A stretch of DNA of 64,000 nucleotides from Cliona cf. orientalis (lineage: Eukaryota > Porifera > Demospongiae > Clionaida > Clionaidae), in the NCBI GenBank assembly GCA_963930775.1, contig OZ005695.1, positions 1,798,001 to 1,862,000 on the forward strand. The letters are read 5' to 3'. The translations under genes and the position numbers were made by a program. Below the pieces are notes generated by a model, which was not told the origin of the DNA, did not search any database, and saw only the letters and a list, made by a program, of their open reading frames with translations. Shown here in pieces: positions 16,309-43,410 of the stretch (the stretch's first letter is position 1; each line of letters starts with the position of its first letter).

Positions 16309-17558
16309 TTACACTGGAGCCTCTGGTTTGCTCACCGGGCATTCGATAGGAGCTGATGCAGGACATTCTGTTTGTTCAAAGATCCCTCCACACTGTCCAC
16401 CTTGTCCAGATCTAGCCAGCTTGGCGTCGTAGCCTCCACCTGCATCTCCCATAGCCCCCAGATTTACCTCACCATTGGCCATGTTAGCTGATACAGCAAA
16501 ATTACTCTTGCCCGACCTTCTCCGCCTGTTAATAAGTACATCAAAAGTGCTCAGTTAGTGAATATTAAATCTTGACTACATAATATAATGAAGTTCATAA
16601 TTTTACTGACCAGCAGATGAACACGGTGATACTCACTGCAGCAATGGTTCCCACTACCAGGATCACCACCCCCACGACAATACCAATCACTCTGGAGCAT
16701 GTATGCAGTATCTCCGATGATGATTGTTCATTGATATCTGTAATATTATGTTCAATGGGGCTACTCCCAAGAGCTATAATATAATAATAATATAATAATT
16801 ATAATACTGTAGTTAGCTCTGGAGCACTAGCGCTAGCACTGCTATAGTAGCAGCATAATATAGTGCTAGTCTGAGTAGTAACAATCAGTGTTTCTATGCA
16901 TGGGCTCACTTGTTAAAAGTTGACTGGTTGTAGCTATACTTGGCCATGCAGTGGTCAGAGGTGGTATCCAGTCCACTATAAAATTTAATTATAAGCTTGT
17001 AAAAACTAGCAGTTGATGACGATGCAAACCACTCACCTATGTTCACATACACAGTCACAATGTCACCAGCAGCATTGGGCACCTCACAGCGAAAACGACC
17101 TCTCTCTGATGGATTACCAAAACGATGCAAGCGTACTGCCCCACTAGTCCTATCTCTGGAGAAAAAATTTCTAGTGGGATCAATAGCAGACTCCTGCATT
17201 AAGCTCCCAACTTGAGTCCCATTAGGGCGGTACCAGTGTCCCTGAGCTACACCATCTGATGCACTTGAAGCTCTACAACAATCACTTCTGTCAGTGTTGC
17301 AATATAGACTGCTAGGGCGTGTACCAATAGCACTGGCTAGGACATAGCCATCGCTGGGGATAGTCTCTCCGTTGAGCGAGAGGGTCACTCCTGGTAGTAC
17401 AAAGCACAGCTAATTAAGGTTAGTCAGCCACTCTCATAGATAAACCACTCACCTCCATGGCCAGGCTGTCCACTGACAAATGAAATACTAGTAGTCACAA
17501 ACAGCAGTGCAGTAAGCAAGAGTGAAGTTTGCAAGCATTGATTCTTGACTATAGCCAT
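16309..17558 (-). CDS. IgA: miniature Ig-type membrane receptor, 267 aa, 4 exons
   Basis: Exons 17453-17558, 17037-17390, 16611-16737, 16309-16525 on minus; 804 nt in frame. Residues 1-31 form a signal peptide ending near FVSGQ. Residues 36-153 are one Ig-like module with YCNTDRSDCC, GHWYRPNGT and RFRCEVP (paired Cys and core Trp). Residues 170-195 are one membrane helix (GIVVGVVILVVGTIAAV), then a basic stop RRR and a ~70-residue tail. The Ig exon has the same 354-nt length and close sequence to the first module of IgD, and the membrane exon is also the IgD size (127 nt), so IgA looks like IgD with the middle modules lost. The tail aligns with IgB-D but five of its six tyrosines are changed or cut off, and a stop replaces the final YATADEI block. 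First gene upstream of LIG1, same strand. Confidence 0.82.
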
Positions 17559-17699
17559 AGCTTCTTTAAGAGTGCTTTCTGATTTTTTTTGGTGCATATA
17601 TATCGACCAATTATTTATAATAGATGCATAACTACGATCATTCCATGGCGTGGATGCGCAGAATGAATGTGTGGACTAACGTGACATAAGCAAAGGGTT

Positions 17700-17977
17700 G
17701 CTGCACCCTATTAAATTTGTCCCCAACCAAGATAAACAATACTGTTTAGCTAATATCTGTGTAAATAGTATCAATCTGAAACCACACATGACATTATAAG
17801 AACTGCAGTAGTGCAATGGCAGTAATAATAATATTATTATTGTCATGCTTGCAGATATTGTAAACATTGAAGTGTTGTCTCAGTTCCACTATCAGTGGTT
17901 TTAATATCAGTTCTAGCACACACTGGAGTCTCTGATCTGGTTTACTCACTGGGAAATTCATAGGGAGCTGGACATTC
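17700..17977 (-). pseudogene. Remnant of an Ig-receptor 3' end (3' flank plus tail exon)
   Basis: The stretch CCAAGATAAACAA...TTTAGCTAAT matches the sequence downstream of IgB-D, and 17900-17977 matches tail-exon sequence (the inverse of GCTCCAGTGT...CCAGTGAGTAAACC) with small gaps. No open frame remains. It is joined directly to a LIG1 fragment at ~17978, so it marks a duplication breakpoint. The promoter of IgA must lie in or next to it. Confidence 0.65.
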
Positions 17978-18500
17978 TGGTCTTTTTATCACCTAACTTA
18001 CTGTCACTGTCACTTCCTGACAGTTTGCTGCAAACACATACAGCACAAAAAGATACAAAACCACATCAAAGATGATCACTGATAACATCAGCAGAGTGGC
18101 GCAGTGTGCTGGGCCCATAACCCAGAGGTCGATGGATCGAAACCATCCTCTGCTAATATTTTTTTTCTTTGAACTAATTACCATTAAATTTTCTCTTGAT
18201 CCACTTTAAATTGGTGCACTTCTCTTTTTCAGACTTTTGTCTTGGTGCTATAAAATCGACAACAAACGAAATAAGTTCGTTAAGGTAGGGTTCGTTAATA
18301 AGTTGGAGGACAGCAGATCAGATCAGTAGCGACTATATTATTATAAGATACTGTTGCCGACAACGCTGGCTCTAGTATCGAATTAAAGGTACAATTAACA
18401 AAAGTCTGTGCCACTTACATGTACAGGATAGCTACCCCTTTGTGTCATGCCAATATGTTCCAAATAGATCCTGCCGACTTCCAGTAGGGCTATAGGTTGC
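17978..18500 (-). pseudogene. LIG1 5'-end fragment, copy 1 in the Ig array
   Basis: Contains, in LIG1 order, the 3' part of an exon-6-like stretch (GTGACAGTGACAGTAAG), a damaged initiator tRNA, an exon-5-like stretch (~18190-18245; GAAGTGCACC and GGATCAAGAG), intron-1 sequence, and an exon-1-like start ATGACACAAAGGGGTA at 18448. Exons 2-4 are missing, with the same deletion joint as in the other copies. An insertion after AGGGGTA disrupts the PIP-box coding. Not expressible as ligase. Confidence 0.8.
18090..18155 (+). pseudogene. Initiator tRNA-Met pseudogene with D-arm deletion
   Basis: Matches the intact tRNA at 14282-14353 but lacks six bases in the D arm (CGCAGTGTGCTGG instead of CGCAGTGGGAGCGTGCTGG). 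Acceptor stem, CAT anticodon arm and T arm are kept. The D arm cannot form normally, so it is probably non-functional. Confidence 0.8.
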
Positions 18501-18840
18501 GCATGCGTAGATAGCAGAATGATGCACAACATATTTGCACACGTGATCGCAGTCAGAGTGCACTTGAATATAGCTATAAACGTGACATAAACAACTGGTG
18601 TACTAGGTATTTAGACTTTGTCCCTAGCCAAGATAAACAAATAATGTTTAGCTAGCTAATACTGTTATCTGTAGCTACAAACATTGTCATTAAATTTTAT
18701 GATCTGAATCTAGCTACAATACTAAAATTAATGCGGAAGTATATACAATGTCATGCTACAGCATCTGATGCTGTATAATTTCTGTAACATTAAAGTGCTG
18801 TTTTTCCAGTTTTAGCGATTTCATCTGCTGTAGCATATAG

Positions 18841-21800
18841 CTACACTGGAGCCTCTGGTTTACTGACAGGGAATTCATATGGGAGAGCTGCTCCAAGATA
18901 TTCTGTTGGTTCATAGGTCCTTCCACTTTGTCCTGACCTAGCTAGCTTGTTGGGATCTTCATACTCTCCACTTACATCTCCCAAAGCCCCCAGCTTCACC
19001 TGACCATAGGCCATATTTGCTGACACAGCAAAATTGCTCTTGCTCGACTTTCTCCGCCTGTTAAATATATCAAAAGTGCTCACAGAATAATACTTGCCAA
19101 TAGTGACTGTAGTGAAGTTCAGTTCATACCAATCTCAATTGCAAGATCATAATAATATTTATACATCACTGACCAGCAGATGAACACTGTAATAGCAGTC
19201 ACTGCAGCAATGATTCCCACTACTAGGATCACCACCCCCACAGCAATACCAACCTCACTGGAGCTTCTGCACGATGTCTCCGATGACGACTGATCTATGC
19301 AATTCATCCAGAAAATCAATACAGGTTTGGGATATTAGCTAGCTAGCTATTATGTCGCTAGTTCACCTGCAGTTGTCACAGTTGCAGTGATAAGTGCACT
19401 GGGCAACTGAGTTGACTCAGAGCGGATAGATACAGATCCCACTTGACTTGAATTTAGCCCTATGCTGGTGACAAACGAAGGAAGAAGAAGATTTTGCCCA
19501 TTGCCAAAGAAGATCCTGTATCCAATAATAGCAGGGGCAGCATCTGATGGAGGACTCCAGCTGATCTCCACTGGGGCAGAGGAACCAGACTGAGTAGCTA
19601 CAACATCCATAGGGGGAGCAGAAGCTGAAGAAAAAGATTATTAGGTTAATAATAATTACATACAGAACAGATTTAGTATACCTTGCACAATAAAGTTAGC
19701 AGAATTTAACACTTGGTCGCTGGTCCCTCTTATTGTGCATGTGTATGTTCCTGGTGCCCTACCACTGACCATAAGGACGCTGCTGTACGTAAGAGAAGGT
19801 GGAGGCATCAATCACTACTAGAGGATCAGTATTGTCCAACAAGAAATCATCTTTCATCCAAACCACACCACTGGCTTGTCCACCAATGGAGTTACAGGTG
19901 AGAGAGAAGCTGATATTCATAGAATCTTTATCGGATATGAACTCAAAGTTAATTTGAACCATTACACCTGCACAAATGTCACTCATACTTTAATATAAAT
20001 GGCAATAAATGGTCATGACTTACGAAGATGTACAGTGATTTCAATAGTATTATTGCTGAGCACTTCAGATCCAGTGAGGTAGGTTGCAGTCGATTGTTGT
20101 CTGATAGTAGCTATACAGGTGTAGCTTCCCGAGTCACTCCTCCCAAATGAGTTGAGCTGGTTGGTGTAGGTGAAGGTTGTGCCTCTCGTTGTGTTAGACA
20201 GACTGAGTATGGTTCCATTTGGGTGGATCAGCTGTGCGGACACCATCAGCAGTGGGAGATCAGACTCCAGTATTGTTGAGTTTAACTCCACAGTACAGGT
20301 CACAGTGACAGTGGATGTAGCATCTACTGGAGTACTTGTGACAAGCACAGAGGCTGTGGAGGGGACTGCAGGAGAAAGAGATTATGATTATCACGTACTT
20401 TATCACTCTGCTTACTCTAGAAGTATACTAACCTATTAGTCTGATGTCTTTAGTATGACTGAGCATTATCCCATCCACGGTGATCTGGCAGGTGTACCGA
20501 CCAGCATCAGACAGACGGAGAGAAGAGAAGAAGACAGTTGATCCCGTTTCAGAGAGCACAGTGTCATCTCTCCTCCATTGGTATGCACTGACAGGACCGC
20601 TAGCTCCAGTGACTTCACAGGTGAGAGAGTAGCTCTGTCCTAGAGCTGGAGTGGCTACACTACCTGTGATAAGTACACTGATGCTGGTAGCTGAATGTCG
20701 GAGGTGAAGGGTGGGGGTGGAGAGAGATCGTAAAAATCACAAAAAATTTAACAACTCACTGATTGTGGTACAGATTCTCTGTGTAACATCTAGGGCATCA
20801 GGTACCACACAACAGAACAGCCCAGTTGGTATGAAGACATTAGTATTGAGGCGGTTCAGGTTGACTGCTCCATCATCTCCCCTGGTTCTATAAAATGATG
20901 TAGCCCTGCCTGGAATTGGAACAGCTGTCCCATTAGGAAAGAGCCACTCTCCAAATCTGTTTGGTACAGTTGCACAACATGGCCTTCTATCAGTGATGCA
21001 CTGGAGTCCAGTGTTGGATGTAGTGTCCCCAATCTCATTGGTGGAAATGATACTGTTATTAGAATAGACTGCTCCCCTCAGAAGGAGGTGGACACCTGTA
21101 TGGGCATTTGAAAGAATAGTCTAAGAAAGAGGGTTGAAGAGATGTCTGCGTGTGTGCATGTGTGTGTCTGGTATATGACACTATTATAATATTAATATTA
21201 TTGTGTGAGTGATCTAGATATTAACTATATAGCCTCACCGGTGGTAACTCTGAGTGTTTCAGATTGTGAACTGCTGCTAGAAAGGAATGGATTTGAAGGT
21301 GATGGACTAATAGCAGCCATGCAGGTATAGACTCCAGAGTCTCTCCTCCCAAATGAGCTGATTGTCACTGCAGTAGTGTAGGTGGCTCCGGACACTGATG
21401 GAGTAGTGGTAGTCAGTGGACTCCCAGCTGGATCTCTCAATTGAATATTCATAGCCACTGGGACATCTATTGCTGGGTCCAAGTCAGCCATGCAGGTCAA
21501 AGTAACAGTGGATCCAATTGGACGAACCATGAGTGGGTTAGTTTGATTCGTTGAGATCCTGATTACTGTTGGCCCAGGCACTAAGTTGGAATAGCTATTA
21601 ATAATTGAAGATAATGGCTCTAAAGATAACGTCAACCTACAAGTCAGTCGAATACCCACAAAGTTGGATGAAGCAGTGCTAATGGGATCACTGGTGACAG
21701 TGGCTTGACAGGTATAGCTTCCAGCGTCAGAGAAGGTGAGAGGAGAGAAGGAGAGAGTAGCATCTGATACCGCTGTACCATTCTTTAACCACTGGTAGGT

Positions 21801-22502
21801 CACCATAGCATCAGTGAGGCCCTCAGCTAAAGTGACTGTACAGGTGAGGGAGAACATTGATCCTACCATTGGAGTAGCTGCACTTGACACAACACTGACA
21901 GAGTCTGGATAAGGATATGTAATTTTCACACTAAGTTATACCCTTAGCAATTTACCATAATTATTATCTAGTGTATAATTATTGATTAACCAACTCACAG
22001 ATTATGGCACAGATTCTTTGCGTAACATTTAGGGCATCAGGTACCACACAGCAGAATAGCCCAGTTGGCATGAAGACATTAGTATTGAGGCGGTTCAGGT
22101 TGATTGCTCCATCATCTCCCCTGGTTCTGTAAAATGAAGTAGCTCTGCCTTGAGTTGGAACAGCTGTCCCATCAGGAAAGAGCCACTCTCCAAATCTGTT
22201 TGGTACAGTTGCACAACATGGCCTTCTATCAGTGATGCACTGGAGTCCAGTGTTGGATGTAGTCTCCCCAATCTCATTGGTGGAAATGATACTGTTGTTA
22301 GAATAGACTGCCCCCCTCAGAAGGAGGTGGACACCTGTGTGTGTGTATGTGAATAGAAGGAGGGTTGAATGTGACGTGTGTGTGTAATTAAATGTGTGAG
22401 TGTGATAAATTACTCACCTGTGGGCTGTCCACTGACCACTGTAGTTGCAAACAGCAGCACAGTAAGCAAGAGTGAAAGTTGTGAGCATCGATTATCAACC
22501 AT
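18841..22502 (-). pseudogene. IgB: Ig/FN3 receptor gene with frameshift and early stop, 11 exons
   Basis: Exons on minus: 22418-22502, 21999-22334, 21641-21904, 21239-21580, 20760-21095, 20433-20690, 20024-20365, 19682-19967, 19367-19624, 19174-19294, 18841-19057. Order: signal peptide; double-cysteine Ig module (a), Ig b, Ig c, a, Ig d, e, f, one FN3 domain, membrane helix, tail. All internal exons are phase 1-1 and splice sites look good. Exon 19682-19967 is 286 nt where paralogues have 282: an extra GTAC sits next to TCTTAC near 19785 and shifts the frame into a quick stop. Without that break the chain would be ~946 codons. The tail also ends early at TAG (18841-18843), followed in frame by the ancestral 16 residues. 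Could be a recent pseudogene, a secreted form, an allele, or an assembly error. Confidence 0.7.
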
Positions 22503-22664
22503 AGCTATAGCTTCTTCAAGGGTGTATATTTTCTGATTTTTGTTGGGTGCGGACCAATCTATATAATGCTAATATGGCCACTATGATGGTTCCACAGCTT
22601 GGATACGCAGAATGAATATGTGCACTAGGTATAAACGTGATATAAACACAGGGTTGCTGCTTCC

Positions 22665-22806
22665 CATTTGTCACCAGCCAAGATATTGTTTAGCTAATGT
22701 CTATGAGAACATTGTCAACCTGAATCTGAAACCACATGATACAATAATTTTAAATAAATATATAGGAAATGAAGTAATGATTTTCTGTTGTAGCATACAC
22801 TGGAGC
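22665..22806 (-). pseudogene. Short remnant of an Ig-receptor 3' end
   Basis: Matches the 3' flank of the Ig genes (AGATATTGTTTAGCTAATG) and the tail-exon end (GTAGCATACACTGGAGCC, inverse of GGCTCCAGTGTATGCTAC). It then breaks off into AT-rich sequence leading to the next LIG1 fragment. Confidence 0.55.
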
Positions 22807-22959
22807 CTTTACTAGAGACTCTAATTTTTTTTTTTTGTATTTGTATATAATAATTTTGCATGATGATATGCATAAAATAGCAAAAGCTAATACGAGTATG
22901 TACCCACTAGCTATATTACAAGATTAATAGTAAGGTAAAAATAAGAACTTTTGCTACAT

Positions 22960-23440
22960 ACACAATACAGAACAAAAGATACAAAACCACATCAAAGATG
23001 ATCACTGATAACATCAGCAGAGTGGCGCAGTGGGAGCGTGCTGGGCCCATAACCCAGAGGTCGATGGATCGAAACCATCCTCTGCTAATATTTTTTTCTT
23101 TGTACTTACCATTAAATTTTCTCTTGATCCACTTTGGTGCACTTCTCTTTCCCAGACTTTTGTCTTGGTGCTATAAAATCGACAACAAACGAAATAAATT
23201 CGTTAAGGTAGGGTTCGTTAATAAGTTGGAGGACAGCAGATCAGATCAGTAGTGGCTATATTATTATAAGATACTGTTGCCGACAACACTGGCTCTAGTA
23301 TTGAATTGAAGGTACAATTAACTAAAGTCTGTGCCACTTACATGTACAGGATACCCCTTTGTGTCATGTCAATATGTTCCAAATAGATCCTGCCGACTTC
23401 CAGTAGGGCTATAGGGTGCGCATGTGTAGATAGCAGAATG
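22960..23440 (-). pseudogene. LIG1 5'-end fragment, copy 2 in the Ig array
   Basis: Same composition as copy 1: intact initiator tRNA, exon-5-like block near 23115-23170, the shared deletion joint, and exon-1-like ATGACACAAAGGGGTATCCT at 23367 with codons QRGIL still readable. Exons 2-4 are absent. The promoter block survives, but its E2F-like element is mutated (GTCGGCAGGA). Confidence 0.8.
23016..23087 (+). tRNA. Initiator tRNA-Met (CAT), duplicated copy
   Basis: Base-for-base the same 72-nt initiator tRNA as 14282-14353, including full acceptor, D, anticodon (CAT) and T arms, followed by a T-run within about 10 bases. It travels inside the duplicated LIG1 fragment and appears functional. 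Confidence 0.9.
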
Positions 23441-23713
23441 ATGCACAACATGTTTGGTTTCATGGCACACGTGATCGCAGTCAGAGTGCACTTGAATATA
23501 TTATAAACGTGACATGAATAACTAGTGTAGGTTGCTAGCTATTTAGACTTTGTCCCTAGCCAAGATAAACAATTGCAAATAATGTTTAACTAGCTAATAC
23601 CAGTATCTGTACAAACATTGTCATTATGACCTGAATCTACAATACTTTGTATAATGCGGAAGTATCTACAATACCATATGCTATAGCATCTGATGCTGTT
23701 AATTTTTGTAACT

Positions 23714-26700
23714 TTAAAGTGCTGTTTTCCCAGTTTTAGTGATTTCATCTGCTGTAGCATACACTGGAGCGGCCTCTGGTTTACTGACAGGGAATTCATA
23801 CGGGAGAGCTGCTCCAGGATATTCTGTTGGTTCATAGGTCCTTCCACCTCCCCCAGACCTAGCTAGCTTGTCAGGATCCTCGTACTCTCCACTTGCATCT
23901 CCCAAAGCCCCCAGCTTCACCTGACCATAGGCCATATTTGCTGACACAGCAAACTTGCTTTTGCTCGACTTTCTCCGCCTGTTAAATATATCGAAAGTGC
24001 TCACAGTTAATGCCAGAATAATATTTGCCAATAGTGACTATAGTGAAGTTCAGTTCATACCAATTTTAATGCAAGTTCATAATAATAATATTATAGTTTA
24101 CACATCACTGACCAGCAGATGCACACTGTGATAGCAGTCACAGCAGCAATGGTTCCCACTACCAGGATCACCACCCCCACAGCAATACCAACCTCACTGG
24201 AGCTTCTGCATAATGTCTCCGGTGATGATTGATCTATGCAATTCATCCAGAAAATCAATACAGGTTTGGGATATTAGCTAGCTATTACATGTATGTCGCT
24301 AGTTCACCTGCAGTTGTCACAGTTGCAGTGATAAGTGCACTGGGCAACTGAGTTGACTCAGAGCGGATAGATACAGATCCCACTTGACTTGAATTTAGCC
24401 CTATGCTGGTGACAAACGAAGGAAGAAGAAGATTTTTCCCATTGCCAAGGAAGATCCTGTATCCAATAATAGCAGGGACTGCTTCCGATGGAGAACTCCA
24501 ACTGACCTCCACTGGGGCGGAGGAACCAGACTGAGTGGCTACAACATTCACAGGAGGACCAGAAGCTGAAGAAAAATTTATTGGGTTAACAATAATTACA
24601 TACAGAACAGATTTAGTATACCTTGCACGATATAGTTAGCGGAATTTAAAATTTGGTCGCTGGTCCCTCTTATTGTGCAGGTGTATGTTCCTGGTGCCCT
24701 ACCACTGACCATAAGGACGCTGGTGTAAGAGTGGGTGGAGGCATCAGTCTCAACTAGAGGATCGGTGTTATCCAGTAAGAAACTATCTCTTGTCCAAACC
24801 ACACTACTAGCTTGTCCACCAGTCGAGTTACAAGTGAGGGAGAAGCTGATATTCACAGATTCTTTATCGGATATGAACTGAAAGTTAACTTGAACCATTA
24901 CACCTGCATGGACGTCACTCATAAATTTATAAAATTAAAGGCAATGCATGAATAGTCATGACTTACGAACAGTGATTTCAATAGTATTACTGCTGCGTAT
25001 TTCAGATCCAGTGAGGTAGGTTGCAGTCGACTGTGGCATGATAGTAGCTGTACAGGTGTAGTTTCCAGAGTCACTCCTCCCAAATGAATTGAGCTGGGTG
25101 GTGTAGGTGAAGGTTGTACCACTCACACTGACAGTGTTAGACAGACTGAGTATAGTTCCATTTGGGTGGGCCAGCTGTGCGGACACCATCAGCAGTGAGA
25201 GATCAAACTCCATTATTGCTGAGTTTAACTCCACAGTACATGACACAGTAATGGTGGATGTGGCATCTACTGGGCTAGAGGGGGTACTTGTCATAGACAC
25301 AGAGGCAATGGAGGGGACTGCAGGAGGAAGAGAAGCTGAAGATTATCACTTTATGGATCTACTAACCTGTTAGTCTGATATCTTCAGTATGGCTGAGCAT
25401 CATCCCATCCACAGCGACCTGGCAGGTGTACTGGCCAGCATCAGACAGACGGAGAGAAGAGAAGAAGAGAGTTGATCCTGTTTCAGAGAGCACAGTGTCA
25501 TCTCTCCTCCATTGGTATTCACTGACAGGACCACTGGTTCCACTGACTTCACAGGTGAGGGAGTAGCTCTGTCCTGGAGCTGGAGTGGCTACACTACCAG
25601 TGATACGTACAGTGAAGCTGGGAGCTGAATATTAAATTAAGCGGAGGGAAATGGGATTATACCATTATCACTCAAATTTAATCAACTCACAGATTGTGGC
25701 ACAGACTCTCTGCATAACATCTAGGGCATCAGGTACCACACAACAGAACAACCCAGTTGGCATGAAGACATTAGTATTGAGGCGGTTCAAGTTGACTGTT
25801 CCATCATCTCCCCTGTTTCTGTAAAACGATGTAGCTCCGCCAGGAATTGGAACAATTGTCCAATTAGGAAAGCGCCACTCTCCAAATCTGTTTAGTCGAG
25901 TTGCACAACATGGCCTTCTGTCAGTGATGCACTGGAGTCCAATGTTGGATGTAGAGTTAATCTCCCCAATATCAGTGATGAAAATAACACTGTTGTTAGC
26001 ATAGACTGTCCCCCTCAGAAGGAGGTAGACACCTGTATGTGTATGGGTGTTTGAAAGAATATTCTAAGAAACAGGGTTGAAGTGATATCTGCACGTGTGC
26101 ATGTGTGTGTGTGTCTGGTATGTGATACTATTATAATATTATTATGTGAGTGAGTCTAGATTTAAATTAACTGACAGTAAAAACTATAGCCTCACCGGTG
26201 GTAACTCTGAGTGTTTCAGATTGTGAACTGATGGAAAGGAATGATGGACTAACAACAGCTGAGCAGTTATAGACTCCAGAGTCACTCCTCCCAAATGAGC
26301 TGATTATGGCTGCAGTGGTATAGGTAGATCCAGACACTGATGGAGTAGTGGTAGACAGTGGACTCCCAGCTGGATCACTCAACTGAATATTCACAGTCAC
26401 TGGGACATCTATTGCTGGGTCCAAGTCAGCAGTGCAGGTCAGAGTAACAGTGGACCCAATTGGACGAATCATTAGTGGGTTAGTTTGATTCGTCGAGATC
26501 CTGATCACTGTTGGCCTAGGCACTAAATGAGAAATAATAATATTGTAGTTGCTATTAATTGAAGATAATGGCTCTAAAGATCACATCAACCTACAAGTCA
26601 GTCGAACACTCTCAGAGTTGGATGAGGCAGTGGTAATGGGGTCACTGAGTAGACTAGAGGTGATAGTGGCCTGACAGGTGTAGCTTCCAGCATCAGAGAA

Positions 26701-28791
26701 GGTGAGAGGAGAGAAGGAGAGAGTAGCCATTGTCTGATCTGATACCACTGCACCATTCTTAAGCCACTGGTAGGTCATCATAGCATCAGTGAGCCTCTCA
26801 ACTAAAGTGATAATACAGGTGAGGGAGTACATTGATCCTACCATCGGAGTAGCTACACTTGACAAAACACTGACAGAGTCTGGATAAGGAGATGTAATAT
26901 ATATAATTAAAGTAAAGCAATTTACCATAATTATTATCTAAAAATTGATTAATCAACTCACAGATTGTGGCACAAATTCTCTGCATAACATTTAGGGCAT
27001 CAGGTACCATACAACAGAACAGCCCAGTTGGCATGAAGACATTAGTATTGAGGCGGTTCAGGTTGACTCTTCCATCATCTCCCCTATTTCTGTAAAATGA
27101 TGTAGTCCCATAATAATATAGATTTGGAACAGCTGTCCCATTAGGAAAGAGCCACTCTCCAACTCTGTTGTTCGGTACAGTACAACATGGCATTCTATCA
27201 GTGATGCACTGGAGTCCAGTGTTGGATGTGGAGTTAGTCTCCCCAATATCGGTGATGGAAATGATACTGTTGCCAATATAGACTTCCCCCCTGAGAAGGA
27301 GGTAGACACCTGTATGTGTGTATACGTATGTGCGTTAAACAGTTTGAAAGAATAGAGAGGGTTGCATGGGAGTGATGTGTGCGTGTGTGTGGATGTGAGT
27401 GTGTCCCTTTAATTATATGTGAGAGAGTTAGCTCTACAATCAAATCAACTGACAATTATTGTAGCCTCACCAGTGGTAACTCGGATTATTACAGATTGCG
27501 AACCGCTGCTGGACAGGAATGAATTTGAAGATGATGGAGTAACAGAAGCTGAGCAGTTATAGACTCCAGAGTCATTCCTCCCAAATGAGCTGATTGTGGC
27601 TGCAGTGGTGTAGGTGGCTCCAGAGACTGATGGAGTAGTGGTAGCCAGTGGACTCCCAGCTGGATCTCTCAGCTGAAAATTCACAGTCACTGGGACATCT
27701 ATTGCTGGGTCCAAGTCAGCTGTACAGGTCAGAGTAACAGTGGATCCAACTGGACGAACCATTAGTGGGTTAGTTTGATTCGTCGAGATCCTGATCACTG
27801 TTGGCCTAGGCACTAAATGCGAAATATTGTAGTTGCTATTAATTGAAGATAATGGCTCTAAAGATATCGTCAACCTACAAGTCAGTCGAACACTCTCAGA
27901 GTTGGATGAGGCAGTGGTAATGGGATCACTGAGTAGACTAGAGGTGATAGTGGCCTGACATGTGTAGTTTCCAGCATCAGAGAAGGTGAGAGGAGAGAAG
28001 GAGAAAGTAGCCATTGTCTGGCCTGATACTACTGTACTATTCTTAAGCCACTGGTAGGACACCATAGCATCAAGGAACCTCTCATGATCAACTAAAGTGA
28101 CTGTACAGGTGAGGGAGTACAGTGATCCTACCATTGGAGTAGCTACACTGGATGCAACACTGACAGAGTCTGGATAAGAAGGTGTAATTTACACACTAAG
28201 TTACACCCGAAAGTAAAATGAGTGTATTGTAAAAATGAATTAAGCAACTCACAGATTATGGCACAGACTCTCTGCGTAACATTTAGGGCATCAGGTACCA
28301 CACAACAGAACAACCCAATTGGCATGAAGACACTAGTATTGAGGCGGTTCAGGTTGACTGCTCCATCAGCTCCCCTGTTTCTGTAAAATGATGTAGCTCC
28401 ACCTTGAGGTGGAACAGCTGTCCCATCAGGAAAGAGCCACTCTCCAAATCTGTTTGGTTGAGTTGCACAACATGGCCTTCTGTCAGTGATGCACTGGAGT
28501 CCAGTGTTGGATGTAGAGTTAGTCTCCCCAATCTCAGTGATGGAAATAACACTGTTGTTATCATAGACTGTCCCCCTCAGAAGGAGGTAGACACCTGTAT
28601 GTGTGTATGTGAACAGAAAGAGGGTTGGGAGTAACGTCTGTGTGTGTGAGTGTGTGTGTGTGTGTGTGTTTGAGTGTGATAAACTACTCACCTGTGGACT
28701 GTCCGCTGATAAATGAAATGCTGGTAGTTACAAACAGCAGCGCAATAAACAAAAGTGAAAGTTGTGGGCATCGATTCTCAACTATAGCCAT
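23714..28791 (-). CDS. IgC: large Ig/FN3 membrane receptor, 1303 aa, 14 exons
   Basis: Exons on minus: 28692-28791, 28253-28594, 27879-28169, 27471-27812, 26962-27309, 26595-26879, 26196-26522, 25691-26032, 25367-25624, 24967-25317, 24622-24903, 24308-24565, 24113-24233, 23714-23978; 3912 nt in frame. Signal peptide 1-31, then Ig-like modules a-b-c (34-358), a-b-c (359-678), a (679-792), d, e, f (793-1089), FN3 (1090-1175), membrane helix (~1185-1213) and an 87-residue tail. Type a modules carry CITDRRPCC and GLFCCxVPDA; b to f carry DAGxYTCxA or DSGxYxC Ig cores. Tail: basic RRRKSSKSK, then AYGQ, EYEDP, TYEPTEYP, LPYEFP, APVYATADEI and C-terminal KTAL, a class I PDZ ligand. Intact and likely functional as an adhesion/recognition receptor (inference). 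Confidence 0.87.
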
Positions 28792-28929
28792 AGCTTCTTC
28801 AAGCTATAGGGTACTTTCTGATTTTTGTTGTATGCAGACCAATCTATATTACTATTAACTTAGTATGATCACTATAATGATGGTATGGATGCACAGAATG
28901 AACAAGTGCATTTAGCTACGTGATTGCTG

Positions 28930-29181
28930 CATCCCATTTGTCCCCAACCAAGATATACAATATTATTATTATTATTATTATTTAGCTAATACCTTTGTAA
29001 ACACTTTCAACCTGAAACTACTTGATATTGTATAAACAATGAAACTCCTTGATATTGTATAAACAATGCCATAATAATATTATTATTATTATAGGAATTA
29101 TAGTGGTGCCATGGCAGTGTATTATTATTATCATGTATGCAGACACTGTAAACATTGAAGTGTTGTCTTTCCACTGTCAGT
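28930..29181 (-). pseudogene. Remnant of an Ig-receptor 3' flank
   Basis: Matches the 3' flank seen next to IgA (CCCCAACCAAGATA, TTTAGCTAAT, GTAAACATTGAAGTGTTGTCT) but contains no tail coding. Interrupted by ATT-rich repeats. It abuts the copied UNC13-like promoter. Confidence 0.5.
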
Positions 29182-29314
29182 ACAGTATTGCGCATGCGCG
29201 ATACATGTGCCAACAGCAGAAAGTAAAATAATGTTGTGGGCGTGGCTGTGGATCTCGATAAGTAAGTGGTCAGCTGCGCCGGTAGTGCAAGCGCAAGATG
29301 GCCACTAACGGCAG
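29182..29314 (+). pseudogene. Copy of UNC13-like gene 1 promoter and first codons
   Basis: Parallels 34525-34657: CAGTATTGCGCATGCGCG, CCAACAGCAG, GTGGGCGTGGCT, then AAGATGGCCACTAACGGCAG with the start codon at 29298. Identity stops after ~17 coding bases, where the sequence switches to the 3' end of the initiator tRNA. The perfect NRF1-type palindrome is retained at 29189-29200. The frame continues only about 20 codons into the LIG1 fragment. Confidence 0.8.
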
Positions 29315-29700
29315 GAAACCATCCTCTGCTAATATTTTTTTTCTTTGTATTTACCATTAAATTTTCTCTTGATCCACTTTGGTGCACTTCTCTTTCTCAG
29401 ATTTTTGTCTTGGTGCTATAAAATCGACAACAAACGAAATAAGTTCGTTAAGGTAGGGTTTGTTAATAAGTTGGAGGACAGCAGATCAGATCAGTAGCGA
29501 CTATATTATTCAAGATAGATACTGTTGCTGATAATGCTGGGTCTAGTATTGAATTAAAGGTACACTTAACAAAAGTCGATCTGTGCCACTTAGCTACAGG
29601 ATACCCCTTAATGCCATGCCAATATTATATTCCAAATAGCTAGATCCCGCCAACTTCCATTAGGGTTATAGGTTGTGCATGCGTAAATAGCAGAATGGTG
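29315..29700 (-). pseudogene. LIG1 5'-end fragment, copy 3 in the Ig array
   Basis: Starts within the tRNA (only its last 17 bases, 29315-29331, remain), then exon-5-like block, the shared deletion joint, and an exon-1-like ATGGCATTAAGGGGTATCCT at 29617. The E2F-type TTGGCGGGA is intact at 29645-29653, unlike copies 1 and 2. No ligase product possible. Confidence 0.78.
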
Positions 29701-29962
29701 CACAACATAATATTTAGTTTCATGGCACACATGATCACAGTCATAGTGCATGCACTTGAATATATAAACGTGACACAATATTAAAACAACTGGTGTAGGT
29801 AGCTATTTAGACTTTGTCCCTATAGCCAAGATAAACAAATAATGTTTAGCAAATACCAGTGTCTGTACAAACTATGACCGGAATCTACAATACTAACTGT
29901 ATAATACGGAAGTATCTACAATGTCATGCTACAGCATCTGATGCTGTATAATTTCTGTAACA

Positions 29963-32900
29963 TTAAAGTGCTGTTTTTCCAGTCTTAGTGATTTCATCTG
30001 CTGTAGCATACACTGGAGCCTCTGGTTTACTAACAGGGAATTTATACGGAGGAGCTGCTCCAGGATATTCGATTGGTTCATAGTTCCCTCCACCTCCTCC
30101 TCCCCCACATTGTCCAGAGAGTCTAGCCAACTTGTCGGGATCCTCGTACACACTTCCCATAGCCTCCAGCTTCACCTGATCATAGGCCCTGTTTGCTGAC
30201 ACAGCAAAATCACTCTTGCCTGACTTTCTCTGCCTGTTAAGTACATGTACATCAAAAATATTAATGAATACTATAGGTTTTGCCAACAACGACTATAGCG
30301 AAGTTCATGTTTACAGTACTACTATTATAGTTACATCACTGACCAGCAGATGAACACTGCGATGGCAGTCACTGCAGCAATGATTCCCACTACCAGGATC
30401 ACCCCCACAGCAATACCAACCTCACTGTAACACGTGCAAGGTGTTTCTGATGATGATTGTTCATTGATATCTATGCAATTCATCCAGAAAATCAATAATC
30501 TTTGTGTATATATATAAGCTACGTAGTTCACCTGCAGTTGTCACAGTTGCAGTGATCAGTGCACTGGGTAGCTGAGTTGACTCAGAGCGGATAGATATAG
30601 ACCTAACTTGACTTGAATTTAGCCCTATGCTGGTGATATATGAAGGAAGAAGATGATTTTGCCCATTGCCAAGGAAGATCCTATATCCAATAATAGCAGG
30701 GGCAGCATCCGATGGAGGACTCCACCTGACCTCCACTGGGGCAGAGGAGTTGGATTGAGCAGCTACAACATCCATAGGGGGAGCAGAAGCTGAAGAAAAA
30801 TAATTAGCTAGGTTAGATGCATACACAACGGATTTATTATACCTTGCACAACAAAGTTAGTGGAATTTAGAACTTGGTCGCTGGTCCCTCTTATTGTGCA
30901 TGTGTATGTTCCGGGTGCTCTACTACTGACCATAAGGATACTGCTGTAAGAGAGAGTGGAAGCATCAGTCACTACCAGAGGATCGGTGTTGTCCAACAAG
31001 AAACCATCTCTTGTCCAAACCACACCACTAGCTTGTCCACCGGTGGAGTTACAAGTGAGGGAGAAGCTGATATTCACAGAATCTTTATCGGATATGAACT
31101 GAAAGTTAACTTGAACCATTACACCTGCATGGGCGTCACTCATAAACTTATAAATGGCAATGAATAGTCATAACTTACGAATAATGATTTCAATAGTATT
31201 ACTGCTGCGTATTTCAGATCCAGTGAGGTAGGTTGCAGTTGATTGTGGTCCGATAGTAGCTGTACAGGTGTAGTTTCCAGAGTCACTCCTCCCAAATGAG
31301 TTGAGCTGGGTGGTGTAGGTGAAGGTTGTACCACTCACAGCGTTAGACAGGCTGAGTATAGATCCATTTGGGTGGGTCAGCTGTGCAGACACCATCAGTA
31401 GTGGGAGATCAGACTCCAGTATTGCTGAGTTTAACTCCACAGTACAGGTCACAGTGACAGTTGATGTAGCATCTACTGGGCTAGATGGAGTACTTGTGAC
31501 AGACACATATGCTGTGGAGGGGACTGCGGGAGGATCCGGAAGAAAAGCTGAAGATTATCACTTTATAGATCTACTAACCTATTAATCTGATGTCTTTAGT
31601 ACGACTGAGCATCATCTCATCCACAGTGACCTGACAGGTGTACTGGCCAGCATCAGATAGATGGAGAGAAGAGAAGGAGAGAGTTGGTCCTGTTTGAGAG
31701 AGCACAGTGCCATCTCTCCTCCATTGGTATTCACTGACAGGACCACTGGCTCCACTGACTTCACAGGTAAGGGAGTAGCTCTGTCCTAGAGTTGGAGTGG
31801 CTACACTACCAGTGATACGTACAGTGAAGCTGGTAGCTGAATGTCAAAGATGGGAAAAGAAATTATAATTATCACACAAAAATTTGACCAACTCACAGAT
31901 TGTGGCACAGACTCTCTGTCTAACACCTAGGGCATCAGGTACCTCACAACAGAACAGCCCAGTTGGCATAAAGACATTAGTATTGAGGCGGTTCAGGTTG
32001 ACTGCTCCATCATCTCCCCTGGTTCTATAAAATGATGTAGCACTGTTTATAGTTGGAACAGCTGTCCCATTAGGAAAGAGCCACTCTCCAAATCTATTTG
32101 GTAAAGTTGCACAACATGGCATTCTATCAGTGATGCACTGGAGTCCAGTGTTGGATGTAGAGTTAGTCTCCCCAATATCGGTGATGGAAATGATACTGTT
32201 GCCTGTATAGACTGTCCCCTTCAGAAGGAGGTAGACACCTGTATGTGTGTATGTATTAAATAGTTTGAAAAAACAGAAAGAAGGTTGGGAGTGACATGTA
32301 CATGTGTGTGGATATAAGTGTGTCCCTATAATAATATTACTATTTAATATGTGAGAGAGTTAGCTCTACAGTCAAATCAACTGACAATTATTATTATTAT
32401 AATATTGTAGCCTCACCAGTGGTAACTCTGAATGTTTCAAGTAGTGAAACAAAAGAATTTGAAGCTGATGGACTAACAGTAACTGTGCAGGTATAGACTC
32501 CAGAGTCACTCCTCCCAAATGAGCTGATTGTGGCTGCAGCGGTGTAGTTGGATCCAGATACTGATGGAGCAGTGGTAGCCAGTGGACTCCCAGCTGGATC
32601 ACTCAACTGAATATTCACAGTCACTGGGACATCTATTGCTGGGTCCAAGACAGCCATGCAGGTCAGAGTAACATTGGATCCAATCGGATGAACCATTAGT
32701 GGGTTGGTTTGATCCGTTGAGATCCTGATCACTGTTGGCCTAGGTACTAAAATTAGTTAATGAGTGACATTGGTAAGGAGCTATGAGGACCCCTAGTATT
32801 TAAGAAAGACCTACAAATCATGATCAGTTGAAGACTCTCAGTGTTGGATGAGGCAGTGGTAATATGACTTATGAGTAGACTAGAGGTGACAGTGGCCTGA

Positions 32901-34125
32901 CAGGTGTAGCTTCCAGCATCAGAGAAGGTGAGAGGAGAGAAGGAGAGAGTAGCCATTGTCTGATCTGACACCACTGCACCATTCTTTAACCACTGGTAGG
33001 TCATCATAGCATCAGTGAGCCTCTCAGCTCCAGTGACAGTACAGGTGAGGGAATACATTGATCCTACCATTGGAGTAGCTACACCGCTGGATACAACATT
33101 GACAATGATGGTTGGGTCTGGAGATGAGAAGATGCATGCAAGATATCAACAAATCATTTAAGTTTATACTCACTCTCTACATTGAGGCCCCAGGATGCTG
33201 ATGCTGTAGCATTAATATCGTCAATTGTAGCTCTGCATGTGTATGTCCCAGTATCAGAGGCTGACAGTAGGTTAAATGTCAGTGTGCTCATGTTACCAGT
33301 TGTCACCACTCCAGATGTGATCATGTTGTCATGCATCAGCCAGGTTATCATTGGCTGATCAGCTGACCCAGTCACAGTAACAGTACACTCAAGACTGTAG
33401 CTCTCCCCAGCAGTGTTTCTACTGGAAGATGTGACAGCAACATTGATAGTTACAGGAGGCGGTGAAGCAGTTGTTAGTGGAATCTCTGTTGCTGGTGGTG
33501 TGCTCCCTGGAGTATAATATACCCAAGTGGTCGGTGGTTCCTCTAGAGTGGTCCCAAAAAGTTAATAATATTGTAGAACTAGCAGTTGATGATGATACAA
33601 ACCACTCACCGATATAAACAGCTATAGTCTCATTGGCACCATCAACATCGGGTACCTCACAGTAAAAATGACCTCTCTCTGATGGATTACCAAAACGATG
33701 TAAGCGTACTGCCCCACTAATCCTATCTCTATAGAAAAAATTTCTAGTGGGATCACTAGCAAGCTCCTGTGAGAAACTCCCAACTTGAGTCCCATCAGGG
33801 CGGTACCAGTGACCCTGAGCCACACCATCTACGGCATCTGAACCTCTGCAACAATCACTTCTGTTAGTGTTGCAATAAAGACCACTAACACCAGCACCAA
33901 TATCACTGGCCCAGACATCGCCTTTATGGTGGATAATCACTCCATTGAGCGATAGGTAAACTCCTGGTAGTATGAAACGCAGTTATTAGTCAGCCACTCT
34001 CAGATATTAATTCACTCACCTGTGGGCTGTCCACTGACAATGTCAACTGAAATGCTGGTAATGACAAATAGCAGCATAGTAGACAAGAATGAATGTTGTG
34101 AGCATTGATTTTCTACCACAGCCAT
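29963..34125 (-). CDS. IgD: large Ig/FN3 membrane receptor, 1114 aa, 12 exons
   Basis: Exons on minus: 34020-34125, 33610-33963, 33174-33542, 32815-33117, 32417-32746, 31897-32238, 31579-31836, 31179-31523, 30843-31124, 30532-30789, 30344-30470, 29963-30233; 3345 nt in frame. Signal peptide 1-33. Module 36-153 is the IgA-type domain (YCNTNRSDCC, GHWYRPDGT). Residues 154-276 are a Thr/Pro-rich linker plus an Ig domain not found in B or C. Then come Ig b, c, a, d, e, f (277-896), FN3 (897-982), membrane helix (~998-1022) and an 89-residue tail. Tail motifs: RAYDQ, VYEDP, a seven-Gly run, NYEPIEYP, PPYKFP, APVYATADEI and C-terminal KTAL (class I PDZ ligand). It is the array member nearest the UNC13-like genes. 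Ligand unknown. Confidence 0.87.

Positions 34126-34639: not shown

Positions 34640-43410
<8,771 letters not shown>

What the first reader, a model, noticed from the sequence alone, without database searches (positions are those of the whole stretch)
16309..34125. Tandem array of four Ig/FN3 receptors with signalling tails: candidate recognition locus
Seen: four same-strand paralogues share signal peptide, Ig-like modules of several recurrent types, FN3 (except IgA), a GVxILVVGxIAAV membrane helix and a tyrosine-rich tail. All internal exons are phase 1-1 so modules can be gained or lost without breaking the frame, and module number varies from 1 to 10. Known: cnidarian and tunicate allorecognition loci (Alr, FuHC/fester) are clusters of polymorphic Ig-like transmembrane receptors with such tails. 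Inference: this could be a sponge self/non-self or cell-adhesion receptor locus.
Basis: partly seen in the sequence, partly recalled or inferred. Interest (0 to 1): 0.9.

Follow-up and report, generated by a model that had tools for sequence, protein, structure and literature searches.

The report
Sponge family of diversifying Ig receptors
Four neighbouring sponge genes belong to a large, fast-evolving family of cell-surface receptors whose outer domains vary at antibody-like loops, which makes them strong candidates for recognising self, neighbours or microbes, although which of these they do has not been shown.

Summary
Corrections: IgA's tail has one tyrosine, IgB is probably broken, and the TM/tail intron is phase 2. 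The genome matches the demosponge Cliona cf. orientalis. This is not "the" locus. The genes belong to a family of at least 63 loci with its tail or FN3 module, in 25 groups (10 single), 29 loci on scaffold C15. Outer modules V1, C2, C3 and V2 show positive selection; C4, C5, C6, FN3 and tail do not; 40 null simulations stayed below the positives. The V module has no Pfam match above cut-off but folds confidently (pLDDT 89.9). V2 variability concentrates in three segments placed like antibody CDR1, 2 and 3, also in database homologues. Tails keep AYxxV in 28 of 29 loci. Best reading: a germline-diversified recognition-receptor family. Allorecognition and microbe or symbiont sensing both remain open, because no allele data could be reached.

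The parts
29963..34125 (-). IgD gene: SP, V1, C1, C2, C3, V2, C4, C5, C6, FN3, TM, tail; 12 exons, open frame of 1114 aa
   Evidence: splice-site scan and assembly; Pfam Ig_3 2.2e-44
23714..28791 (-). IgC gene: SP, V2a, C2a, C3a, V2b, C2b, C3b, V2c, C4, C5, C6, FN3, TM, tail; 14 exons; the V2-C2-C3 trio is repeated inside the gene
   Evidence: (spacing about 1.27-1.29 kb); first 678 aa
18841..22502 (-). IgB gene, probably broken: SP, V2a, C2a, C3a, V2c, C4, C5, C6 (frameshifted), FN3, TM, tail (stop before last Tyr motif)
   Evidence: C6 is 286 nt instead of 282; frame is restored if C6 is skipped; stop shown
16309..17558 (-). IgA gene: SP, V1, short hinge exon, TM, tail with 1 Tyr; no FN3
33610..33963 (-). 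V1 module of IgD (outermost domain)
17037..17390 (-). V1 module of IgA (only Ig-like domain of that gene); aligns with V2 at 35% identity
28253..28594 (-). V2a module of IgC, the domain modelled by AlphaFold2 (pLDDT 89.9); most variable segments at residues 43-49, 58-66, 103-108
26962..27309 (-). V2b module of IgC
25691..26032 (-). V2c module of IgC
31897..32238 (-). V2 module of IgD
21999..22334 (-). V2a module of IgB
20760..21095 (-). V2c module of IgB
30532..30789 (-). FN3 module of IgD (copies in IgC 24308-24565 and IgB 19367-19624)
   Evidence: Pfam fn3 E 1.4e-4, below cut-off, on the IgB copy; 49 matches in the genome at E<=1e-10
30344..30470 (-). TM exon of IgD (IgC 24113-24233, IgB 19174-19294, IgA 16611-16737)
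29963..30233 (-). cytoplasmic tail exon of IgD with AYxxV, YEDP, YEPx and VYAT motifs (IgC 23714-23978, IgB 18841-19057, IgA 16309-16525)
19780..19800 (-). 4 extra bases that shift the frame in exon C6 of IgB
   Evidence: 286 versus 282 nt; seen directly
18090..18840 (.). 3' flank duplicated with the gene (copies about 23016-23713 and 29340-29962), carrying a tRNA-Met copy in two of the three
   Evidence: repeat families D10, D18, 96% between the first two copies and 68% to the third; tRNAs

Best explanation
These four genes are members of a large germline-encoded family of IgSF cell-surface recognition receptors in the demosponge Cliona cf. orientalis. SHOWN: tandem duplication, differing module number along phase-1 exon borders, mosaic similarity between neighbouring genes, broken copies, positive selection detected in the outer modules V1, C2, C3 and V2 but not in C4, C5, C6, FN3 or tail, and V2 variability concentrated in three segments. 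INFERRED: the V domains bind variable ligands through BC, C'-C'' and FG loops at one tip, C modules and FN3 act as spacer and stalk, and binding leads to phosphorylation of the conserved tail tyrosines, mainly AYxxV (a Y-x-x-[ILV] core motif), which dock SH2 proteins. IgA (one V domain, nearly Tyr-free tail) would be a decoy or a partner-dependent chain; IgB a decaying copy. The ligand class (conspecific cells, microbes or symbionts) is not determined.
For: Gene models. Census: 47 tail loci, 49 FN3 matches, union 63 loci in 25 groups, 29 on C15, which is 3.9% of the genome. The module order V1-C1-C2-C3-V2-C4-C5-C6-FN3-TM-tail recurs at C15 7.89-7.93 Mb. Family-wide pooled pairwise dN/dS: V1 0.79, C1 0.87, C2 0.82, C3 0.70, V2 0.56, C4 0.56, C5 0.62, C6 0.33, FN3 0.38, tail 0.45. 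Site models M1a/M2a, 2dlnL: V2 101.6, C2 60.4, V1 40.2, C3 30.3; C4 5.1, TAIL 2.9, C5 2.0, C6 0.3, FN3 0.3. The four positives stay significant after masking gap-near columns and with separate trees for the two halves summed, while C4 and C5 stay negative. 40 null simulations reached at most 12.8. V2 sites with PP>0.9: 45, 46, 59, 62, 63, 65, 106, all 7 inside the three variable segments; 6 of the 7 recur in the gap-masked run. Of the 22 most variable V2 positions, 13, 16 and 16 lie in the three segments (22 residues) in three sequence sets. AF2 model pLDDT 89.9. AYxxV in 28 of 29 tails.
Against: No expression, ligand, signalling or allele data. The site test is a home-made script on paralogues sampled by similarity to the window; broken copies were dropped, and mosaicism inflates such tests (2 of 12 recombinant C3 simulations exceeded 5.99; V2 itself was not simulated). 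The first halves of C2 (p 0.061) and C3 (p 0.61) alone are not significant. The pairwise gradient is not smooth: V2 (0.56, dN>dS in 4 of 345 pairs) is no higher than C5 (0.62), and the TM exon had dN>dS in 14 of 64 pairs and was not site-tested. 9 of the 22 most variable reference V2 positions lie outside the three segments, and V1 variability is spread more widely. Loops tend to vary in any Ig domain. Strict ITIM occurs in 3 of 29 tails, ITAM and hemITAM in 0 of 29. The three window V modules seen in the protein database (P0001, P0121, P0151) are each listed as one member sequence on two contigs; if those contigs are the two haplotypes, this speaks against allelic diversity there.
Confidence: 0.72

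Rival explanations
1. Allorecognition: the family decides fusion or rejection between sponge individuals, with polymorphic V domains of opposing cells compared and signals sent through the tails.
For: Sponge graft responses are specific and repeatable, which is taken to indicate a polymorphic genetic system (passage of PMC5450542). Clusters of IgSF genes with probable pseudogenes hold the allorecognition genes of Hydractinia (passages of PMC11067881). Botryllus FcoRs have a V-type Ig domain, TM and a tail that can carry Y-x-x-[ILV] (passages of PMC12065747). Selection in outer modules and a conserved AYxxV.
Against: No polymorphism data could be reached. No homology to Alr or fester was tested. 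Spread over 25 groups on ten scaffolds, the family looks less like a single histocompatibility locus, although Podocoryna ALRs also occur on several chromosomes. The Amphimedon grafting study saw no significant enrichment of cell-adhesion or aggregation-factor genes.
Confidence: 0.3
2. Innate sensing of microbes or of photosymbionts: germline-diversified receptors that bind bacterial or Symbiodiniaceae surfaces and trigger phagocytosis or tolerance.
For: Some Ig-domain genes change expression after microbial-pattern exposure in two other sponges (passages of PMC6208332). Symbiodiniaceae sequences were found in the reference specimen (PMC12639293). Positive selection in the outer modules fits host-microbe conflict equally well.
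Against: No expression data for this family. Long Ig/FN3 rods with Tyr tails are as typical of cell-cell contact receptors (general knowledge). IgD's tail matched no Pfam family, so no TIR, CARD or death domain.
Confidence: 0.3
3. Ordinary homophilic or heterophilic cell-adhesion molecules that duplicated and drifted under relaxed constraint, without a special recognition role.
For: PDB hits of IgD and of modules C1, C2 and C4 include titin, contactins, Dscam, CD22, sidekick and similar proteins. Pooled dN/dS is below 1 in every module. Several copies are broken.
Against: Relaxed constraint does not give site classes with omega above 2 that are significant only in the outer modules, nor entropy peaks inside an otherwise conserved V2 framework.
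Confidence: 0.2
4. Artefact: the selection signal comes from alignment error and gene conversion, and the hypervariable segments only reflect indel-rich loops.
For: Mosaic structure is real (p 0.001 in 2000 shuffles; C4-C5 intron K 0.064 between IgC and IgD against 0.29 and 0.36 for the other pairs). Many gaps lie near the V2 sites. Recombinant nulls can reach 12.8.
Against: Signals of 30 to 102 exceed each of the 40 null runs (V2 not simulated). Signals of 19.5 to 80.9 remain without gap-near columns, and 6 of 7 V2 sites recur there. Sister modules of the same genes are negative.
Confidence: 0.08

Closest known systems
Hydractinia / Podocoryna Alr family (allorecognition complex)
   Same: Single-pass IgSF surface proteins in clusters, with gene models thought to be pseudogenes, and in Podocoryna with outliers on other chromosomes (passages of PMC11067881 and PMC13119343).
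   Different: Here a recurring module order with one FN3 and a shared tail, in another phylum. No sequence or fold link to Alr tested. No allele or fusion data.
Botryllus fester / FcoR receptors at the fuhc locus
   Same: FcoRs have a V-type Ig, two C2-type Igs, one TM and a tail that can carry Y-x-x-[ILV] core motifs, in a family of 53 loci so far (passages of PMC12065747).
   Different: No sushi domain among the families listed for IgD and part of IgC; up to 10 Ig modules and an FN3; strict ITIM in 3 of 29 and hemITAM in 0 of 29 tails.
Geodia cydonium Ig-containing receptor tyrosine kinase and sponge adhesion molecules
   Same: Sponge surface proteins with Ig domains. PDB chains 8ovq ('Cell recognition molecule, long form') and 8qpx ('Receptor tyrosine kinase (Fragment)') match module C4 at 1.3e-7 and 6.7e-7. 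That these two are the Geodia proteins is recalled; the tool named no organism.
   Different: No closer than vertebrate or insect IgSF chains in the same list. No kinase domain found in IgD.
Dscam, contactins, CD22-type IgSF rods
   Same: Multiple Ig domains on a rod (FN3 too in the first two, recalled). Among the PDB hits of IgD and of modules C2 and C4.
   Different: Insect Dscam diversifies by alternative splicing (recalled); here diversity lies in gene copies and site-specific substitution. Splicing was not examined.
Antibody, VNAR and TIM V domains
   Same: Antibody V domains vary in BC, C'-C'' and FG loops (recalled), as V2 does here. Profile A2 hits NCAM2 at 6.3e-6 and, weakly, TIM-1 (0.017), TIM-4 (0.5-0.72) and a VNAR (0.67).
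   Different: No joining segments seen. Different cysteine set (vicinal CC plus B and F strand Cys). A single V2 sequence found nothing significant (best 0.33) and the broader profile A3 only 0.036.

Membership tests
Ig V-type domain (for module V1/V2) | B-strand Cys, C-strand Trp, F-strand Cys in a beta sandwich | tested here: met
   C34 invariant, W52 and C97 in 90% or more of 131 sequences. AF2 model with eight strands, pLDDT 89.9, pTM 0.83. Strand naming is by analogy; coordinates were not inspected.
Ig V-type domain (for module V1/V2) | Recognised by a curated Pfam Ig model | tested here: not met
   V1: Ig_2 at E 0.1 only; V2: no family. Of the 7 diverse members of A2, 1 matched an Ig model, at 0.11.
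Ig V-type domain (for module V1/V2) | Structural match to solved Ig domains | not tested
   Fold search accepted no job. Sequence profiles against the PDB: NCAM2 6.3e-6 with A2, best 0.036 with A3.
Alr allorecognition family | Single-pass IgSF surface protein | tested here: met
   Signal-peptide-like start, Ig modules and one TM helix seen directly in the translations; no predictor was run.
Alr allorecognition family | Clustered genes with pseudogenes | tested here: met
   15 groups of two or more loci plus 10 single loci, 29 of 63 on C15. Lesions in IgB and in 3 of 6 tail-bearing C15 genes examined.
Alr allorecognition family | Sequence or fold homology to Alr1/Alr2 | not testable with these tools
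   No Alr sequence was at hand; fold search unavailable; PMC9546547 not held.
Alr allorecognition family | High allelic polymorphism that predicts fusion or rejection | not testable with these tools
Botryllus FcoR | V-type Ig, sushi, two C2 Ig, TM | tested here: not met
   No sushi domain among the 16 families listed for IgD.
Botryllus FcoR | Tail with ITIM, hemITAM or Y-x-x-[ILV] core motif | tested here: met
   Core motif in 28 of 29 tails; ITIM in 3 of 29; hemITAM in 0 of 29.
Sponge Ig-type receptor tyrosine kinase | Cytoplasmic kinase domain | tested here: not met
   Tails of 71-89 aa in the four window genes end the gene; IgD and its tail matched no kinase.
Sponge aggregation factor | Calx-beta and wreath domains (recalled) | tested here: not met
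   None among the families listed for IgD and part of IgC.
Germline-diversified recognition receptor (general kind) | Positive selection at the ligand-binding end only | tested here: met
   with null runs. Which end binds is inferred; C1 and TM were not site-tested.
Germline-diversified recognition receptor (general kind) | Allelic or copy-number variation between individuals | not testable with these tools
   9 V proteins on other long ENA contigs were sought here: 46 matches at E<=1e-30 from 45 scored of 491 candidates, at most 82% identical. Their species is unknown.

The most novel reading that the evidence does not exclude
A sponge possesses its own antibody-like recognition system: at least 150 and perhaps several hundred germline V domains (150 of 150 scored candidates matched, 491 candidates), with three CDR-like hypervariable segments, carried on Ig/FN3 rods with tyrosine-motif tails, concentrated in a megabase-scale region and used to tell self from non-self. 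If so, this would be the long-sought genetic basis of sponge allorecognition, and variable V-domain loops as recognition surfaces would reach back to early animals or have arisen independently in sponges.
Probability: 0.25. Interest if true: 0.95.

Novelty: new variant of a known kind. Interest (0 to 1): 0.7.

Why it matters
The genes behind sponge self/non-self discrimination are unsettled: aggregation factors are the usual candidates (recalled), and the Amphimedon grafting study saw no significant enrichment for them. This family has features expected of such a system (many copies, broken copies, mosaicism, selection in the outer modules, a conserved tail motif) and sits in a public chromosome-level genome with a deposited alternate haplotype, so the idea can be tested at once. 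Whatever the function, a V-like domain with three hypervariable segments under diversifying selection in a sponge bears on how old the use of V-domain loops for recognition is. The V module has no Pfam match above cut-off, so Pfam-based annotation will undercount it.

Tried and rejected
Considered and rejected: (a) a single dedicated locus, because the loci lie in 25 groups on ten scaffolds; (b) a receptor tyrosine kinase, no kinase domain in IgD; (c) an aggregation factor, no matching domains; (d) the tRNA-Met copies as a SINE: only 8 matches genome-wide, so they look like tRNA genes carried along by the duplication; (e) an intron gained in C6 on C15: the split at 7931.4-7931.7 kb is an insertion with stop codons and an internal palindrome, judged by eye.

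Led nowhere or weak: the first AlphaFold run with a low-diversity alignment gave pLDDT 53.8 and was set aside for the diverse one. Comparing exon with translated intron flank for database proteins left 16 pairs of 288 proteins, pooled divergence 0.207 against 0.148, but pairs were picked by flank similarity, so it is not used. Papers: 10 searches showed no description of this family in their listings; only open-licence papers are held. Of every paper cited I saw only search listings and passages.

Rows dropped: one search used 40 of 51 rows (those with E up to 0.007) and all rows; 16 of the 49 FN3 matches had no tail within 1.5 kb and may belong to other genes. One search used 29 of 30 tail loci (L034 shows only the end of a tail). 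Entropy used 42 of 47 reference V2 copies. Module sets exclude copies with stops or under 85% of the model. The random-placement figure for the three segments (1 of 200000) was computed after the segments had been chosen, so it is descriptive and not used as proof.

Full report
WHAT IS THERE. The window is part of a 216.8-Mb genome (G000:C7:1798001-1862000). All ten scaffold lengths I could see agree with Table 3 of the Cliona cf. orientalis genome note (PMC12639293, passages only): 37.5, 14.8, 9.99, 9.97, 9.79, 9.46, 8.93, 8.40, 8.35 and 7.76 Mb. The host is therefore very probably this demosponge; totals and scaffold numbers differ (216.8 Mb in 149 against 217.17 Mb in 307), which I take to be small scaffolds left out. 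On the minus strand between 34125 and 16309 lie four genes, IgD, IgC, IgB and IgA. Their exons are modules: signal peptide; two V-like types (V1, V2); six C-like Ig types (C1-C6); FN3; TM; tail. Orders: IgD SP-V1-C1-C2-C3-V2-C4-C5-C6-FN3-TM-tail; IgC SP-(V2-C2-C3)x2-V2-C4-C5-C6-FN3-TM-tail; IgB SP-V2-C2-C3-V2-C4-C5-C6-FN3-TM-tail; IgA SP-V1-hinge-TM-tail.

CORRECTIONS TO THE OBSERVATION. Ectodomain introns are phase 1 (in IgB, if C6 is left out), but the TM/tail intron is phase 2. IgA's tail has one tyrosine, against 5, 6 and 6 in IgB, IgC and IgD, and IgA is the only one of 29 tails without AYxxV. IgB carries 4 extra bases in C6 and an in-frame stop before its last tyrosine motif; skipping the phase-1 exon C6 would restore the frame, so IgB is either dead or makes a shortened receptor, unless the assembly errs here. 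FN3 is below Pfam's cut-off but at E 1.4e-4.

FAMILY AND GENOME CONTEXT. Searching the genome with IgC's tail gave 51 matches at E<=10 from 51 candidates. A second, diverged tail gave 42 at E<=0.01 from 54 candidates, and FN3 gave 49 at E<=1e-10 from 67 candidates. Merged (40 of the 51 rows, all of the others) these are 47 tail loci, 33 of them with FN3 within 1.5 kb, and 63 loci with either module, in 25 groups (15 of two or more, 10 single) on ten scaffolds; 29 loci are on C15, which is 3.9% of the genome. V2 matched all 150 scored of 491 candidates; V1 matched 74 at E<=1e-10 of 150 scored, 463 candidates; both have dense runs on C15 between 7.3 and 8.3 Mb. Such counts are lower bounds. The 50 kb at C15:7885001-7935000 repeats the order V1-C1-C2-C3-V2-C4-C5-C6-FN3-TM-tail. 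Of six tail-bearing genes there, two have every module from V1 to tail unbroken, three show a lesion (a stop in the tail; frameshifts in C3 and C6 of one gene; an insertion in C6), and for the sixth no C6 or FN3 was found. A relative at C15 8.12-8.137 Mb carries related V and Ig modules, FN3 domains, a TM and a different tyrosine-rich tail. So the window holds a four-gene group of a family that gains and loses genes.

DUPLICATION AND MOSAICISM. Long direct repeats at 4.9-6.2 kb spacing include the 3' flanks. Divergence is uneven along the genes: IgB and IgC introns are nearly identical from C6 to the tail (K 0.056-0.063) but reach 0.6 upstream, while IgC and IgD share the C4-C5 intron (K 0.064) against 0.29 and 0.36 for the other two pairs. 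The order of informative sites is less random than shuffles allow (p 0.001 in 2000 shuffles), in keeping with gene conversion or unequal exchange.

SELECTION. In the window, pooled dN/dS is V2 0.81, C2 0.77, V1 0.64 (one pair), C3 0.60, C4 0.58, C5 0.52, FN3 0.40, C6 0.22 (one pair). Over all copies in hand: V1 0.79, C1 0.87, C2 0.82, C3 0.70, V2 0.56, C4 0.56, C5 0.62, C6 0.33, FN3 0.38, tail 0.45, TM 0.64. The fall from tip to membrane is therefore clear but not smooth. I wrote M1a/M2a codon site models (FastTree topology, one global branch scale). 2dlnL was V2 101.6 (47 copies), C2 60.4 (26), V1 40.2 (13), C3 30.3 (21); C4 5.1 (23), TAIL 2.9 (17), C5 2.0 (19), C6 0.3 (9), FN3 0.3 (18). C1 (4 copies) and TM were not tested. 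After masking columns near gaps the values are V2 80.9, V1 37.1, C2 25.8, C3 19.5, C5 2.1, C4 2.7; with a separate tree for each half the sums are V2 111.3, C2 50.2, V1 37.9, C3 20.2, C5 4.2, C4 2.9, although the first halves of C2 and C3 alone are not significant. Null simulation gave at most 4.2 in 12 plain C3 runs; with half-specific trees at most 12.8 in 12 C3 runs (2 above 5.99), 3.4 in 8 C2 runs and 4.1 in 8 V1 runs. V2 was not simulated. Recombination can inflate the test but does not reach 30 to 102.

THE V MODULE. V1 and V2 match no Pfam model above cut-off. A single V2 finds nothing significant in the PDB (best 0.33). The profile of seven diverse V sequences finds NCAM2 (6.3e-6) and, weakly, TIM-1 (0.017) and other V domains; a broader profile gives only 0.036 at best. 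With 131 diverse sequences AlphaFold2 gives an eight-strand domain at pLDDT 89.9, pTM 0.83; a shallower alignment had failed (53.8). In V2 the sites with PP>0.9 are 45, 46, 59, 62, 63, 65 and 106; 45, 46, 59, 62, 63 and 106 recur with gap-near columns masked. Entropy is highest at 43-49, 58-66 and 103-108: 13 of the top 22 positions in 42 reference copies, 16 of 22 in 28 database members of one subfamily and 16 of 22 in 138 database V2 proteins lie in these 22 residues, while the E and F segments stay low (0.2-0.7). Other variable places exist (for instance 8, 17, 109, 112). By the B-strand Cys, C-strand Trp and F-strand Cys these are the BC, C'-C''/D and FG segments, that is CDR1-, CDR2- and CDR3-like. 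V1 is variable more widely. The database holds 1029 proteins matching the V profile at E<=0.001 of 1731 candidates. Nine of those on long contigs were sought in this genome: 46 matches from 45 scored of 491 candidates, at most 82% identical, so they come from other assemblies of unknown species or from the other haplotype.

THE TAIL. Tails of 29 loci keep AYxxV in 28 and YE[DN]P in 22. Strict ITIM occurs in 3 of 29, ITAM and hemITAM in none. The Y-x-x-[ILV] core motif is one that Botryllus FcoRs can carry (PMC12065747, passages). That the tail signals through SH2 proteins is inference.

HOW IT MOST LIKELY WORKS. A germline repertoire of receptors, each with a different set of outer modules and loops, is displayed on the surface. 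The V tip contacts a variable ligand, the C/FN3 part spaces it from the membrane, and the conserved tail reports contact. IgA, reduced to one V domain with a nearly Tyr-free tail, could act as a decoy or need a partner. Ligand identity is open; I give allorecognition and microbe or symbiont sensing equal weight (0.3 each), plain adhesion 0.2.

COMPARISON. It works like Alr, FcoR or other diversified IgSF receptors. It is not filed as a member of any: no sushi domain as in FcoR, no kinase as in the sponge RTK, no aggregation-factor domains, and Alr homology could not be tested. Hence 'new variant of a known kind'. No description was found in ten searches of open papers (listed in Tried and rejected), which is weak evidence of novelty.

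LIMITS. One individual, no alleles, no expression, no fold search, genome letters capped, and copies sampled by similarity to the window.

Noticed in passing
14282-14353, 18090-18155, 23016-23087: tRNA-Met(CAT) genes; the first and third match one query at 100%, the middle one is shorter (66 nt, 92%); two lie in the duplicated 3' flanks of the Ig genes. Eight matches genome-wide, three of them here.
   Followed up: yes
about 38000-64000, plus strand: Probably three tandem copies of a MUN-domain-like (Munc13 family) gene; ORF 59786-60283 matches Pfam MUN at 2.3e-4, below cut-off, with ORFs similar by eye at 40959-41570 and 51821-52243.
   Followed up: partly
3719-4489 (+), 6370-8283 (-), 11772-12134 (-): Ordinary neighbours: UbiA prenyltransferase (COX10-like, recalled), POT/PTR2 transporter, ATP-dependent DNA ligase.
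   Followed up: partly
C15:8122001-8137000 (L074, L075): Large relatives with V modules, many Ig domains, FN3 domains, TM and a tail with YETI, YEIL, YDDV and one ITAM-like pair.
   Followed up: partly
C15:7931409-7931744 (L073): An insertion of about 336 bases with an internal palindrome, transposon-like by eye, interrupts exon C6 of one family member.
   Followed up: no
C15, 7.2-8.3 Mb of 8.35 Mb: The densest region of V-module hits lies near the end of the scaffold, perhaps subtelomeric.
   Followed up: no
G000:C5:1989520, C3:10493186, C19:6309372: V-like modules within very long open frames (568-820 aa), so a related domain may also occur in genes of another build.
   Followed up: no
48181-48347: Two tandem copies of an 82-base unit, 92% matches.
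   Followed up: no
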